From Thermococcus sp. M39 (GTDB lineage Archaea > Methanobacteriota_B > Thermococci > Thermococcales > Thermococcaceae), in contig NZ_SNUG01000007.1 in NCBI RefSeq assembly GCF_012027325.1, positions 1 to 64,000 on the forward strand: DNA of 64,000 nt, written 5' to 3'. Made by a program: the position numbers and the translations under genes. This document shows positions 1-12,625 of the stretch, piece after piece. The notes beneath the pieces are model-generated. The model searched no databases. It worked only from the letters and a program-made list of their open reading frames with translations, and had not been told where the DNA came from. Numbering within the stretch: the stretch's first letter is position 1; every line of letters begins with the position of its first letter.

Positions 1-83
1 GAGGTTCGTATTAATGGATGTAAGCTTTGCCTCAAGGTGGAACTCCGCTAGAGACCAACTCCTATATGACATCCCTCACTATT
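1..83 (+). ncRNA. 3' part of a second copy of the structured RNA element
   Basis: These bases align with the 3' half of the element at 10711-10889: both carry a conserved GCTTTGC block, the loop core AACTCCGCT and the terminal CCCTCACTAT. The 5' half would lie before the window. In the 3' hairpin the stem closing pair is G-C here and A-T in the other copy, a compensatory change that favours an RNA structure over mere DNA similarity. The element ends just before the stop codon of the convergent nucleotidyltransferase gene. Strand is inferred from the other copy, which has a TATA box on the plus strand. Confidence 0.45.
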
Positions 84-84
84 C

Positions 85-1080
85 TTAATCTCCCCTCTGT
101 ATCTTCGCATGCCCACCAACTAAGCTCTTCTTAAGCTCCAAATTCCTAATCTCACACTTCTCATCAATAATCGAACGCCAAATCGTTGAATTCCTTATTA
201 TTGTGTCCTTAAAGATTATCGAATCACTTATATCAGAGTTCTCTATCATACAGTTCTCACCAATGTATGCATAAGGCCCAATAATTGATCTTCCAAGAAT
301 CTTCGCACCCCTTTTTATTACAACAGGAGGAATGATCTTCGCATAAGGACTAATCTGAATCTCCTCAATCTGGCTCTCCTTTAAAAGAGTCTTCAAAGCT
401 TCTAAATAGCTGTCCGCAGAACCTATATCGTACCAGTAGTCATCAAATTTATACGCATGAATCTCAATTCCTTTCTTGAGAAGCCACTGAATAAAATATC
501 CCGGCGAGTCTCTATTACCCTCCTCCAAGTATTGAGGAATCATCTCCATAACTTCCCTTGGAAACACATAGACTCCAGTACTTATCCAAGTTGACTTCGG
601 CTTTGCAGGCTTCTCTTCAAAATCAATTACCTTATTACCTTCAAGGAGAACAACCCCATACCTCTTTGCGAGCTCAAAATCACCGACATCATAAACAGCG
701 ATGAGCGTATTTCCATCGAATCTATCCAAAAAATCCCTCAAGCTGAAAGAGAACAAATTATCCCCAGCGATGACTAGGTAATCATCCAAGCCAAGCCTTT
801 CAAGAGCCTCATTTAAAGCCCCAATCGTGCCGAGCTTCTCCTCCTCATGGAGAGTGTCCTCAATTAAAAGCTCAACATCTTTATCTTTGCTCCACTCCTC
901 AAAGTACTTCGCAAAAAATCGGTTCGTTGAAACATAGACCTTCAAATCAAGCTCTTTCGTTTTTTCAATGATATAGTCAAGAATCACTTTGTCCCCAACG
1001 GGAAGTAAAGCTTTTGGGTTATCTTTTGTGATAGGCCATAGGCGAGTAGCGTAACCACCTGCCATAATCAAAACCTTCAT
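85..1080 (-). CDS. Sugar-1-phosphate nucleotidyltransferase
   Basis: The 331-residue protein transfers a nucleotide to a sugar-1-phosphate to make an activated sugar for glycan synthesis. The N-terminus has the pyrophosphorylase signature (GGYATRLWPIT near residues 8-18, then NPKALLPVG), a metal/nucleotide-binding AGDN at about 105-108 and EEKPAKPKS near 155. From about residue 240 the hexapeptide-like repeats of a left-handed beta helix follow (AKIIPPVVIKRGAKI, GPYAYIGENC). The sugar and nucleotide cannot be read from sequence; glucose-1-P thymidylyl- or mannose-1-P guanylyl-transferase are both possible. A GGTGGTAAT ribosome site precedes the ATG, and a TATA-like TTAAATA lies upstream. A fragment of its 3' end is duplicated at about 10890-11003. 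Confidence 0.9.
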   Translation of the reverse strand: MKVLIMAGGYATRLWPITKDNPKALLPVGDKVILDYIIEKTKELDLKVYVSTNRFFAKYFEEWSKDKDVELLIEDTLHEEEKLGTIGALNEALERLGLDDYLVIAGDNLFSFSLRDFLDRFDGNTLIAVYDVGDFELAKRYGVVLLEGNKVIDFEEKPAKPKSTWISTGVYVFPREVMEMIPQYLEEGNRDSPGYFIQWLLKKGIEIHAYKFDDYWYDIGSADSYLEALKTLLKESQIEEIQISPYAKIIPPVVIKRGAKILGRSIIGPYAYIGENCMIENSDISDSIIFKDTIIRNSTIWRSIIDEKCEIRNLELKKSLVGGHAKIQRGD

Positions 1081-8336: not shown

Positions 8337-8798
8337 TTATCCCTCCCTCCACTCATCCCAAACATCAGCCATTTCACGCAGCAGCTCACTAAATTTCTTT
8401 GTGGTTCTATAGTAATTTCCTGATTTGTATATCATTCGGGCATTTTGGAGCGTTTTTATAACAATATTATAGTTAGTCTTCGCAGTCCCAAAAGGAACAC
8501 CCAATTCTTTCGCTTTCTTTCCAATCCTCTTATGAATCTCCGTTCTGGGCAAACGCTTTCTGACTAGTATAATGTAATAAGCGATAAGTTCCTTATTGCC
8601 GAGATATTCCAAAATAAATCCTAACCACTCTTCTGCTCGAAATCCCTTTTTCTTCTCATCCTCATGAATACGCATCAGCAGAAGTAGAGCCAGCTTCTGC
8701 CTTTCTAAGTTGTTGGGAAACAACAACTTCAGAAGCTCTTTCAAATCTTTTGGTTTTTTCTTAGGAATAATAATTTTAGCTGGTGGAATATATGGCAT
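8337..8798 (-). CDS. Conserved Thermococcales protein, putative winged-helix, copy 1
   Basis: I do not recognise this 153-residue family by name. The N-terminus has a basic PAKIIIPKKKP patch, then alpha-helical segments, and the C-terminal half (FGTAKTNYNIVIKTLQNARMI, then YKSGNYYRTTKKFSELL) looks like a helix-turn-helix followed by a wing. It is about 60 percent identical by eye to the protein at 11075-11542. Both are divergent from a DUF257 gene across a promoter carrying a shared palindrome, so a role as local regulator is inferred. The start is ATG 8798 after GAGGTGAAAGCA. Confidence 0.7.
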   Translation of the reverse strand: MPYIPPAKIIIPKKKPKDLKELLKLLFPNNLERQKLALLLLMRIHEDEKKKGFRAEEWLGFILEYLGNKELIAYYIILVRKRLPRTEIHKRIGKKAKELGVPFGTAKTNYNIVIKTLQNARMIYKSGNYYRTTKKFSELLREMADVWDEWREG

Positions 8799-8876
8799 TG
8801 CTTTCACCTCTTGATACATATTGGTTTACTTGATTTACAACATGTAACCGATGATTACTAACAAAACGATTGCATT

Positions 8877-8899
8877 ATATCGTAGGTTTTATACTATAT
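8877..8899. promoter_or_regulatory. Imperfect palindrome in the divergent promoter, copy 1
   Basis: ATATCGTA and ACTATAT form an inverted repeat with the same spacing as the perfect palindrome at 11613-11635. It lies between the two divergent start codons, next to TATA-like A/T-rich sequence. Conservation between two otherwise diverged intergenic regions suggests a protein-binding site. Confidence 0.5.
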
Positions 8900-8982
8900 A
8901 CCAAATACATAACCAAAAATTATTAAAAACCAACAATCGATAACTACGTGCTATAAAATAACTTGTTTTGAGGTGTATAAAT

Positions 8983-9630
8983 ATGTATGGTATGAATATT
9001 GAGGATGTATGGAGTTCGCTGAAACATGGAGAAATTGTGTTGATAAAATATCCCTCAAATGCTACGCCATACCTCGAGCTCTACAATCTAGTGCAATGGG
9101 CTAAAAATAAGAATTATCAAGTTGTTGTAGATGACATATTGGACACTTTATATGTATACAAGACCCACCTAACATTAGCGGGTTTTGATTTGAATTTACT
9201 CAACGATGTATTGGTCATAAAAGAGGGGGGCAGGTTAGATATTGAAAATGCTGTTGGTCGTACAGGAATCAAAGAATCTGCTATACAACAGAGCAACTAT
9301 GAAAAAATAGCAAGACAGATTTTTGAGAAATCCGATAAATTTATTATCAATATTGTCCTTGGACTAGAGAAAATATTCATACTAACCGATACCAAAAGGG
9401 AAATTCTCAATGCCATAAACAATATTCTATCCCAAATGGGAAATAGAAACAAGCTTACCTTTTATTTCATTAATCTCAGTGTGATAGAGTCTCTGGAGTC
9501 TGGAGTACTCCCTCTTCTCGAAGAGTTAACAAGCACGATTATTAAAATTAAAAAAACAGGGAAGGAAAAACGACTCTTAGTAATAAAATCAATGAGCAGT
9601 ACATTAGACGGGCTGGAGATCCCGCTTTAG
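8983..9630 (+). CDS. DUF257 family protein, copy 1
   Basis: The 215-residue protein matches the Thermococcales-specific DUF257 family: an N-terminal FEDLW/NIEDVWSSLKHGEIVLIKYPS block, LVQWAKNKNYQVVVDDILDTLYVY and VIKEGG, and a C-terminal FYFINLSVIESLESGVLPLL. The alternating strands and helices recall a degenerate RecA/KaiC-like fold, but no Walker A motif is present, so ATP use is doubtful. The ATG at 8983 follows GAGGTG by seven bases. The length equals the paralog at 11722-12369. Function is unknown. Confidence 0.8.
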   Translation: MYGMNIEDVWSSLKHGEIVLIKYPSNATPYLELYNLVQWAKNKNYQVVVDDILDTLYVYKTHLTLAGFDLNLLNDVLVIKEGGRLDIENAVGRTGIKESAIQQSNYEKIARQIFEKSDKFIINIVLGLEKIFILTDTKREILNAINNILSQMGNRNKLTFYFINLSVIESLESGVLPLLEELTSTIIKIKKTGKEKRLLVIKSMSSTLDGLEIPL

Positions 9631-10507: not shown

Positions 10508-10682
10508 CCATATCACCGTATATAATTGATGTGACTATTAAAGAGTACTTTAATGTTTTTTTTATAAATATTCCTTCCTCTACTTGGCCCCTTTAATATC
10601 TCCAAGAATTTATTATTTTCCAAAGTTGCCTTTTATTATTTTAAATTTAAAACTTTAATTAAAACAAGAATTAAAAACTAGA

Positions 10683-10697
10683 AAGGTTTATATATGT
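10683..10697 (+). promoter_or_regulatory. TATA box for the structured RNA
   Basis: AAAGGTTTATATATG is a strong archaeal TATA element on the plus strand. It is placed about 20-25 bases before the 5' arm of the long inverted repeat at 10711, the usual distance to a transcription start. The remaining 10508-10682 is A/T-rich and holds no recognisable gene. Confidence 0.65.
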
Positions 10698-10710
10698 TAA
10701 GTGTGAGTAT

Positions 10711-10889
10711 ATAGTGAGGGGCACCGTATAGGGAGAGATCAAGGCGAAAGCTTCATCTCGATTCAAAGCCCATATCTGAACAAATCCTGCAACTTACCCA
10801 GAGTTGTAAGGGTTTGTGATAGAGATGTGAGCTTTGCTTCAAGGTGAAACTCCGCTGTAGGTCACTTTCTATAGGGTGTCCCTCACTAT
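10711..10889 (+). ncRNA. Candidate structured non-coding RNA, about 179 nt
   Basis: The ends form a 21-bp stem with two mismatches (10711-10731 with 10869-10889). Inside, three helices can be drawn by hand: a hairpin GAGAT/ATCTC capped by a GAAA tetraloop; a long arm CAAAGC/GCTTTG, CATATC/GATGTG, ACAAATCCT/AGGGTTTGT, CAACT/AGTTG; and a 3' hairpin AAGGTGA/TCACTTT. The long arm is interrupted by GA opposite GA with extra bases, close to a kink-turn, so L7Ae binding is possible. A TATA box precedes it. No open reading frame fits. I do not recognise the family; known Thermococcales RNAs such as the Hgc and Ssc groups should be compared. Confidence 0.6.
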
Positions 10890-11003
10890 CCTTCTGTCTA
10901 TGTATTTTTGCATATCCACCAACTAAGCCTTTCTCAAATTTCAAATCCCTGATTTCGCATTTCTCATTAATAATCGAACGCCATATCGTGGAGCTTCTTA
11001 TTA
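10890..11003 (-). pseudogene. Duplicated 3' fragment of the sugar nucleotidyltransferase gene
   Basis: On the minus strand the frame reads STIWRSIINEKCEIRD followed by FEKGLVGGYAKIH, matching the C-terminal end of the protein encoded at 85-1080 (STIWRSIIDEKCEIRN, KKSLVGGHAKIQ). Similarity stops near 11003. At the other end it runs through the former stop codon into the RNA element at 10711-10889, so a block containing both was copied as DNA. The original stop is lost here and the frame runs on to 10753; it has no start and is not a gene. Confidence 0.8.
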
Positions 11004-11022: not shown

Positions 11023-11070
11023 TGACCTCCCCCACCCTAAAAGACGAGGCTTGAAAAAAGAGAATGTCAT
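11023..11070 (-). mobile_element. Decayed right-end remnant of an IS605-type (TnpB) element
   Basis: TGACCTCCCCCACCC, an AAA loop and GAGGCTT followed by GAGAATGT resemble the 3' end / guide-RNA scaffold of TnpB elements common in Thermococcales (minus strand GGGCGGGGAGGAGGTCA-like). It aligns with the better preserved copy at 23855-23902. Its hairpin is damaged and no transposase gene is near. It sits exactly at the junction between the duplicated fragment and the next gene. Confidence 0.5.
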
Positions 11071-11074
11071 TGAG

Positions 11075-11542
11075 CTAGCCAGTAGCTAGCCAGTCATTCC
11101 AAACTTCAGCTATCTCACAAAGCAGTTCGCTAAATTCTTTTGTGGTTTTGTAATAGTTCTTTGATTTGTATATCATTCGGGCATTTTGGAGTGTCTTTAC
11201 AACGATATTATAGTTGGTCTTTGTAGTTCCAAAGGGAACACCCAACTCCTTTGCCTTCTCCTCAACCCTCCTATGGATCTCGGTCCTAGATGTTTTTTTC
11301 TTGACAAGCGTTCGATAATAGCAAATCAGCTCTTCACTACCAAGGTATTCTAGGATTAGCTCCAGCCACTCTTCTGCTCGGAGTCCATCCCTTTTCATCT
11401 CAGCATTGTGAATCCTCTCTAATAAAAATCTAGCCAACCTCTGCCTCTCAGGGTGATTAGGAAATAGTAATTCCAAAAGCTCGTCTAAATTTCTCGGCTT
11501 CTTTTTAGGAATAATGATTTTAGCATTTGGAACATATGGCAT
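11075..11542 (-). CDS. Conserved Thermococcales protein, putative winged-helix, copy 2
   Basis: The 155-residue paralog of the protein at 8337-8798 keeps the basic NAKIIIPKKKP start, RAEEWLELILEYLGSEELI and the C-terminal FGTTKTNYNIVVKTLQNARMIYKS helix-turn-helix-like block. The last residues (WLATG) are read from a tandem repeat of GCTAGCCAGTA next to the TnpB remnant, so the C-terminus may have been altered by that event. The start is ATG 11542 after GGGGTGGAGTTA. It is divergent from the second DUF257 gene. Confidence 0.7.
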   Translation of the reverse strand: MPYVPNAKIIIPKKKPRNLDELLELLFPNHPERQRLARFLLERIHNAEMKRDGLRAEEWLELILEYLGSEELICYYRTLVKKKTSRTEIHRRVEEKAKELGVPFGTTKTNYNIVVKTLQNARMIYKSKNYYKTTKEFSELLCEIAEVWNDWLATG

Positions 11543-11612
11543 TAACTCCACCCCTATTATGCGTGTTTTCCCTACTACTGATGACTAAAAGTATTAAAAA
11601 AAATTTGGAATA

Positions 11613-11635
11613 TATCGTAAGTTTTTTACGATATA
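11613..11635. promoter_or_regulatory. Perfect 9-bp-arm palindrome in the divergent promoter, copy 2
   Basis: ATATCGTAA and TTACGATAT are separated by five bases. The palindrome is followed by a TATA-like CTAAATATATACC. The same arrangement, slightly decayed, occurs at 8877-8899 before the paralogous gene pair. Confidence 0.6.
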
Positions 11636-11721
11636 CTAAATATATACCAAAAGGTATTAAAGTTGAAAAATGTTCTAATTAATATGTATAACTGTTGCTA
11701 AAATATATGAGGTGGCTAGGT

Positions 11722-12369
11722 ATGTATAAGGCAGGTTTTGAAGATTTGTGGAACGCACTAAAACGCGGGGAGACTGTACTTATAGAACATCCATCAGACT
11801 CTATGTCATGTAAAGGACTTTATAGTTTAGTTCAATGGGCCAGAAGTAAGGATTATCCAGTTGTTATTGATGATATCCTAGACACCTTGTATATATACAA
11901 GGTGAACATAGAGCTAGCAGATCTTGATTCAAGTTCGCTTAATGAAGCATTGGTGATAAAAGAGGGGGGCAGACTGAAAGTCGGAAACGTTGTTGGCCAT
12001 ATAACCCTCAAGGAATCTGCTATACAGTGGATGGAATATGAAAGGGTAGCGAGACCTATCTTTGAAAACTCTGAAAAATTGATTATTAATGTTGTTTTAG
12101 GTATAGAAAAGCTGTTCATGTTAGCTGATAGCAAAAGAGAACTAATCACAAACATTAACAATCTCTTATCATGGATAGGAAATAAAAAGAGGATAGCATT
12201 TTATTTCGTGAACCTCAGTCTGATAAATGCCATCGAATTTGGCGTGCTCCCACTTCTTGAGGAGCTGGCAAGCACTATCATTAAAATTGAGAAAATTGGA
12301 AACGAAATAAGAGCAATAATAACAAAATCCGCGAATGATGAACTGAATAACCTTGAGATAAGACTTTGA
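11722..12369 (+). CDS. DUF257 family protein, copy 2
   Basis: This 215-residue protein is the paralog of the one at 8983-9630, sharing LVQWARSKDYPVVIDDILDTLY, VIKEGGRL and INAIEFGVLPLLEELASTI. It lacks a recognisable Walker A. The ATG at 11722 follows GAGGTGG; earlier in-frame starts lie in the leader. The identical length and the same divergent partner indicate duplication of the whole two-gene module, after which the copies diverged considerably. Confidence 0.8.
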   Translation: MYKAGFEDLWNALKRGETVLIEHPSDSMSCKGLYSLVQWARSKDYPVVIDDILDTLYIYKVNIELADLDSSSLNEALVIKEGGRLKVGNVVGHITLKESAIQWMEYERVARPIFENSEKLIINVVLGIEKLFMLADSKRELITNINNLLSWIGNKKRIAFYFVNLSLINAIEFGVLPLLEELASTIIKIEKIGNEIRAIITKSANDELNNLEIRL

Positions 12370-12462: not shown

Positions 12463-12540
12463 GCCCCGGTGGTGTAGCCCGGTCAATCATGCGGGACTCT
12501 CGATCCCGCGACCCGGGTTCAAATCCCGGCCGGGGCACCA
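12463..12540 (+). tRNA. tRNA-Glu (CTC)
   Basis: A complete cloverleaf is seen: acceptor GCCCCGG/CCGGGGC, anticodon stem CGGGA/TCCCG with loop CTCTCGA (anticodon CTC), T-arm CCGGG-TTCAAAT-CCCGG, and an encoded CCA at 12538-12540. There is no intron. Confidence 0.97.
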
Positions 12541-12547
12541 GCGAAGA

Positions 12548-12625
12548 GGGCCCGTGGCTCAGCCTGGTTAGAGCGCCCGCCTGATAAGCGGGAGGTCCGG
12601 GGTTCGAAGCCCCGCGGGCCCACCA
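12548..12625 (+). tRNA. tRNA-Ile (GAT)
   Basis: Acceptor GGGCCCG/CGGGCCC, anticodon loop CTGATAA (anticodon GAT), T-arm with GGTTCGAAGCC and an encoded CCA at 12623-12625. It follows tRNA-Glu by seven bases and is probably cotranscribed with it. Confidence 0.97.

What the first reader, a model, noticed from the sequence alone, without database searches (positions are those of the whole stretch)
10711..10889. Candidate new structured RNA with its own promoter
Seen: a 21-bp terminal stem with two mismatches, an internal hairpin with GAAA tetraloop, a long four-segment arm with a GA-opposite-GA internal loop resembling a kink-turn, and a 3' hairpin; a TATA box lies 20-25 bases before it. No coding frame explains it. 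Inference: it is a stable non-coding RNA, possibly bound by L7Ae. I cannot match it to a known family from memory.
Basis: partly seen in the sequence, partly recalled or inferred. Interest (0 to 1): 0.75.

Follow-up and report, generated by a model that had tools for sequence, protein, structure and literature searches.

The report
New structured RNA in sugar-coat locus
This 170-base stretch is almost certainly the gene of a previously uncatalogued, strongly folded non-coding RNA that about half of the heat-loving Thermococcus-group archaea carry, always inside the gene region that builds their cell-surface sugars, and its job is still unknown.

Summary
Window 10715-10885(+) folds far better than shuffles (z -10.6). 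It belongs to an RNA family that no Rfam 15 model recognises. Covariance models built here find it in 40 of 94 Thermococcaceae genomes, in all 6 genera, and nowhere else in the phylum. In two separate alignments 16 of 55 and 24 of 53 base pairs change on both sides while staying paired. In stems common to both possible folds, G-U outnumbers A-C 82 to 5, so selection acts on the + strand RNA. A TATA box lies 27-29 nt before the stem in 46 of 47 copies. The consensus is a closing stem, a near-invariant GAAA hairpin, a long variable arm and a 3' hairpin. The kink-turn is not conserved, and this copy folds best as a rod. The gene sits in the surface-glycan/sulfate-activation locus, often at an island edge; extra copies are direct repeats flanking glycan genes. 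It was not found on plasmids, phages or viral contigs, and shows no antisense match to neighbours beyond chance. Best reading: an autonomous non-coding RNA, probably protein-bound, serving that locus. The RNA gene is near certain; the function is inferred. Transcription could not be tested.

The parts
10680..10694 (+). A/G-rich BRE-like stretch (10680-10686) and TATA box TTTATATA (10687-10694) of the RNA gene
   Evidence: TATA element begins 27-29 nt before the stem base in 46 of 47 family copies
10715..10885 (+). RNA gene (conserved core, 171 nt)
   Evidence: Fold z -10.6; covariance model hit 162.8 bits (this copy is one of the model's own 13 members); covariation; G-U 82 vs A-C 5 in the stems common to both folds
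10715..10731 (+). Closing stem P1, 5' strand (TGAGGGG...); pairs with 10869-10885; extended outward by about 4 bp in this copy
   Evidence: 98% of cells paired, 4 pairs changed on both sides
10742..10753 (+). P2 hairpin AGGC-GAAA-GCUU; near-invariant GAAGC-GAAA-GCUUC in the family
   Evidence: Alignments A3 and A4; not in the minimum-energy fold of this copy
10764..10836 (+). Long arm P3, apical half variable between genera; apical segment UGCAACUUACCCAGAGUUGUAAGG at 10788-10811
   Evidence: 97% of cells paired in both P3 helices, 8 pairs changed on both sides
10837..10861 (+). P4 / 3' hairpin region; complementary to the P2 region in an alternative rod fold
   Evidence: 84% of cells paired overall; supported mainly by the other clades (92% in A4)
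10869..10885 (+). Closing stem P1, 3' strand (...CCCTCA)
10886..10899 (+). Pyrimidine-rich tail (CTATCCTTCTGTCT), likely transcript end
   Evidence: Pyrimidine/T-rich 3' flank in nearly all copies; inference
10890..11003 (-). Remnant of the 3' end of a sugar-1-phosphate nucleotidyltransferase gene lying convergent to the RNA
   Evidence: 10824-11003 aligns at 77% with window 17-200, where an RNA fragment adjoins the intact gene at 85-1080
1..78 (+). 3' part (model positions 96-173) of a second copy of the RNA, cut by the contig end
   Evidence: R1 hit 39.5 bits, E 8.4e-8

Best explanation
SHOWN (about 0.95): a free-standing gene for a ~170-nt structured non-coding RNA of Thermococcaceae, conserved as RNA on the + strand, with a TATA promoter fixed relative to the closing stem, carried in 1-3 copies in the cell-surface glycan / sulfate-activation locus. 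INFERRED: transcription starts at the closing stem and ends in the pyrimidine-rich tract, giving a compact, end-sealed RNA. The RNA then acts as a protein-bound particle that helps set expression or assembly of the surface-glycan pathway encoded around it (about 0.35 for the locus-linked function, lower for any detail). Its direct-repeat copies at island edges also offer homology by which glycan gene blocks can be duplicated, swapped or lost (about 0.5 as a side effect, about 0.1 as the selected function).
For: Fold z -10.6. 40 of 94 family genomes by R1, with R2 finding 39, and none beyond the family among 115 genomes of the phylum. 16 of 55 and 24 of 53 pairs with double changes, 0 of 500 shuffles reaching them. 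G-U 82 vs A-C 5. TATA spacing 27-29 nt in 46 of 47 copies. A nucleotidyltransferase orthologue lies within about 42 kb of an RNA copy in every genome where both are on one contig. Neighbours are an AglB-like protein, RmlA/RmlB, nucleotide-sugar enzymes and the sulfate-activation operon. The part shared between diverged copies in one genome is close to promoter + RNA: in G085, 59 bp upstream to 7 bp downstream.
Against: No transcript was examined. Half of good genomes lack the RNA while keeping the nucleotidyltransferase (70 of 74), so it is dispensable for the pathway as such. Presence is only weakly associated with RmlC. No base-pairing with flanking genes beyond chance, so no target is indicated. 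Linkage could reflect shared ancestry of the locus instead of function.
Confidence: 0.4

Rival explanations
1. A general housekeeping or stress RNP RNA (translation, protein export or RNA metabolism) that only happens to sit in the glycan locus.
For: Compact end-sealed architecture, near-invariant GAAA hairpin, own promoter and conservation over a whole family look like an RNP RNA rather than an antisense regulator.
Against: Absent from half of high-quality genomes; it is in the glycan region in all the genomes where this could be checked.
Confidence: 0.25
2. A DNA element: a MITE-like palindrome or recombination site that flanks glycan islands, its RNA-like look being incidental.
For: Long terminal inverted repeat; direct-repeat copies flank glycan genes (10-28 kb apart in G000, G004, G082, G085) and occur in tandem in three genomes; an empty site exists.
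Against: G-U wobble 82 vs A-C 5 in the common stems is RNA-strand selection; internal arms covary; promoter spacing fixed; not dispersed over genomes, and not found on plasmids, phages or viral contigs.
Confidence: 0.08
3. A local cis regulator: antisense RNA to, or transcriptional barrier for, the gene that converges on its 3' end.
For: In 30 of 44 loci a minus-strand gene ends within about 120 nt downstream.
Against: The convergent gene belongs to several unrelated families; no antisense complementarity beyond chance (11.0 vs 10.9 nt longest match); a barrier would not need conserved internal arms.
Confidence: 0.15
4. A guide RNA (H/ACA, C/D) or transposase-associated RNA (HgcC / TnpB type).
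For: Such RNAs are common in Thermococcales (PMC3124441, PMC4247193); TnpB-type genes lie near a few copies.
Against: No Rfam match to any guide family, no conserved kink-turn, no ACA after the stem, TnpB in only 4 of 44 neighbourhoods.
Confidence: 0.05

Closest known systems
sRk48/sRk52 repetitive ncRNAs of Pyrococcus abyssi (Phok et al. 2011, PMC3124441)
   Same: Repeated intergenic RNAs of Thermococcales with their own BRE/TATA promoter, primary transcripts of 177-180 nt and several conserved stem-loops.
   Different: They have six copies in P. abyssi plus a K-loop bound by L7Ae; the P. abyssi-sized genome G012 (1,765,118 bp, identification by length from memory) has no match to either model.
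HgcC/HgcE/HgcF/HgcG and SscA (Rfam families of hyperthermophile ncRNAs)
   Same: G+C-rich orphan structured RNAs in A+T-rich hyperthermophile genomes.
   Different: No match in the window or in ten diverse relatives.
EAR RNA of bacterial exopolysaccharide operons (general knowledge)
   Same: A conserved structured RNA tied to surface-polysaccharide gene clusters.
   Different: EAR lies inside and on the strand of its operon and acts on that transcript; this RNA is a separate gene usually facing a convergent gene. No homology claimed.

Membership tests
Independent structured ncRNA gene | Base pairs maintained by compensatory change | tested here: met
Independent structured ncRNA gene | Structure selected on one strand as RNA | tested here: met
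   G-U 82 vs A-C 5 in stems common to both folds
Independent structured ncRNA gene | Own promoter at fixed distance | tested here: met
   46 of 47 copies at 27-29 nt
Independent structured ncRNA gene | Transcript detected | not testable with these tools
   No RNA data held; the supplement listing the T. onnurineus ncRNAs (PMC5316973) could not be read
Any Rfam 15 family, including HgcC/E/F/G and SscA | Covariance-model match at gathering score | tested here: not met
sRk48/sRk52 | Present in Pyrococcus abyssi | tested here: not met
   G012 has no hit with R1 or R2; identity of G012 inferred from its length
Kink-turn / L7Ae-binding RNA | Conserved tandem G-A pairs beside a 3-nt bulge | tested here: not met
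   GA replaced by AA in most relatives (A3); binding itself not testable
H/ACA guide RNA | ACA box just 3' of the stem | tested here: not met
   3' flanks read CTATTCT, TTTTTATT, CTTGTTC etc.
MITE / IS element | Dispersed copies in genomes and mobile DNA | tested here: not met
   1-3 copies in the glycan region; none found in plasmids, phages or viral contigs

The most novel reading that the evidence does not exclude
A new class of archaeal RNP RNA dedicated to the cell-surface glycan locus: it controls or assembles the glycosylation machinery in trans, can switch between a four-way-junction and a rod fold, and its gene copies at island edges drive swapping of surface-glycan gene blocks.
Probability: 0.12. 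Interest if true: 0.88.

Novelty: new member of a known kind. Interest (0 to 1): 0.6.

Why it matters
It adds a covariation-supported RNA family, absent from Rfam, to a group of genetically tractable hyperthermophiles. Because the RNA is present in some close relatives and cleanly absent from others, and lies in the surface-glycan locus, its function can be tested by simple deletion and complementation. If the link is functional it would be, as far as I know, the first non-coding RNA tied to archaeal surface glycosylation.

Tried and rejected
Rfam at gathering and relaxed thresholds, window and ten relatives: no match. Kink-turn: GA pairs not conserved. Coding explanation: overlapping ORFs are small and indels ignore frame. 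Antisense to flanking genes: not above shuffles. Carriage on plasmids, phages or viral contigs: none by these searches (blastn with this divergent copy and one exact 21-mer, so distant members could be missed). Link to the rhamnose enzyme RmlC: 25 of 40 RNA+ and 23 of 54 RNA- genomes, weak. Relic copies next to the conserved 76-aa gene in 11 genomes without a hit: none. Literature: no paper found describing it; T. onnurineus NA1 has 57 intergenic ncRNAs, 35 of them unassigned by Rfam (PMC5316973), and this RNA may be among them, but the supplement was not readable here.

Full report
OBSERVATION. The stretch 10705-10895(+) folds to -96.5 kcal/mol against -50.2 +/- 4.4 for dinucleotide shuffles (z -10.6); the other strand is weaker (z -6.8). 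Rfam 15 finds only two tRNAs in the window and nothing credible at relaxed thresholds here or in ten relatives. No ORF explains the stretch.

FAMILY. BLAST found copies in 12 of 61 related genomes. A covariance model from 13 copies (R1) found 40 of 94 Thermococcaceae genomes in all six genera (36 of 74 good-quality genomes). A second model (R2) from 24 other, much more diverged members (alignment A4) found 39 genomes, all among those 40, and nothing outside the family among 115 genomes of the phylum. E-values from these short-calibrated models are rough, but the two models agree. Eight of nine genomes of genus g2 lack it; g2 includes genomes with the lengths I remember for P. abyssi and P. yayanosii (species names here rest on genome length, from memory).

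RNA, NOT DNA. In A3 16 of 55 pairs, and in A4 24 of 53 pairs, show changes on both sides that keep pairing; no shuffle of 500 reaches the observed counts, and sliding the partners destroys the signal. In the 38 pairs shared by both candidate folds there are 82 G-U but 5 A-C cells, so the + strand transcript is what selection sees. A TATA box starts 27-29 nt before the first stem base in 46 of 47 copies, and the 3' flank is pyrimidine-rich.

STRUCTURE. Consensus: closing stem P1 (17-22 bp), P2 hairpin GAAGC-GAAA-GCUUC (near invariant), long arm P3 whose apical half differs between genera, and P4 hairpin. P2 and P4 are also complementary to each other, giving a rod. In the window copy and its closest relatives the rod is favoured by about 5-7 kcal/mol at 37 C; in most others P2 forms in the best fold. 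Whether this is a switch is open. The proposed kink-turn is not conserved.

CONTEXT. The gene lies in the surface-glycan locus: between or beside the sulfate-activation operon (ATP sulfurylase, APS kinase and neighbours), a sugar nucleotidyltransferase, RmlB, nucleotide-sugar enzymes and a 790-aa protein that I read as an AglB-type oligosaccharyltransferase (the 793-aa relative on contig C13 had no Pfam match at the strict cut-off used, so this name is my reading of the sequence; the names of the sulfate-activation genes are likewise read from the sequence). Wherever RNA and nucleotidyltransferase are on one contig, a copy of the RNA is within about 42 kb of it. A convergent gene ends within about 120 nt of the RNA in 30 of 44 loci. 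A tRNA-Glu/tRNA-Ile pair lies near it in 13 loci. Extra copies are direct repeats: G004 (15 kb apart), G082 (22 kb), G085 (28 kb), and tandem in G071, G081 and G083. In this genome contig C13 (22 kb) has a piece of the RNA at each end in the same orientation and holds rmlA, B, C, D, a flippase and glycosyltransferase genes; contigs C1 and C7 also end in pieces. The assembly breaks inside the RNA, so C1-C13-C7 in a row or C13 as a separate circle cannot be told apart. In G073 the two flanking genes lie 73 bp apart with no RNA: a natural empty site.

FUNCTION. Not shown. Antisense action on neighbours is not supported, nor is mobile-DNA carriage. The compact sealed architecture suggests a protein-bound RNA; constant residence in the glycan locus suggests it serves that locus; dispensability in half the genomes shows it is not essential to the pathway. 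Repeats at island edges would also promote exchange of glycan genes, as cause or consequence.

VERDICT. A real, uncatalogued RNA gene family (about 0.95) with unknown, probably glycan-locus-related function (about 0.35-0.4). Transcription remains to be shown.

Noticed in passing
window 1-78, and ends of contigs C1 and C13 (L014-L017): Three contigs of this genome end inside copies of the same RNA; the 22-kb contig C13 with rmlABCD, flippase and glycosyltransferase genes has a piece at each end in direct orientation, so it may be a repeat-flanked or even circular glycan island.
   Followed up: partly
window 8337-9630 and 11075-12369: A gene pair (160-aa protein without Pfam match, minus strand, plus DUF257 protein, plus strand) occurs twice, once on each side of the RNA, suggesting local duplication.
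   Followed up: partly
window 11031-11052 and L014 1293-1325: A short repeat (CCCCACCCTAAAAGACGAGGCTT / CCCCGCCCTAAAGGACGAGGCTT) near two RNA copies; looks like a transposon-end remnant.
   Followed up: no
L074, L076, L078 (G083, G081, G071): Two diverged RNA genes in tandem about 160 bp apart, each with its own TATA box; the upstream copy is a distinct subtype.
   Followed up: partly
L112 about 1700-1800 (G073): Natural empty site: the 76-aa gene and the nucleotidyltransferase that flank the RNA elsewhere lie 73 bp apart.
   Followed up: partly
window 12463-12622: tRNA-Glu and tRNA-Ile pair downstream of the RNA; the same pair sits about 300-400 bp upstream of the RNA in several other Thermococcus genomes, i.e. 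at the opposite side.
   Followed up: partly
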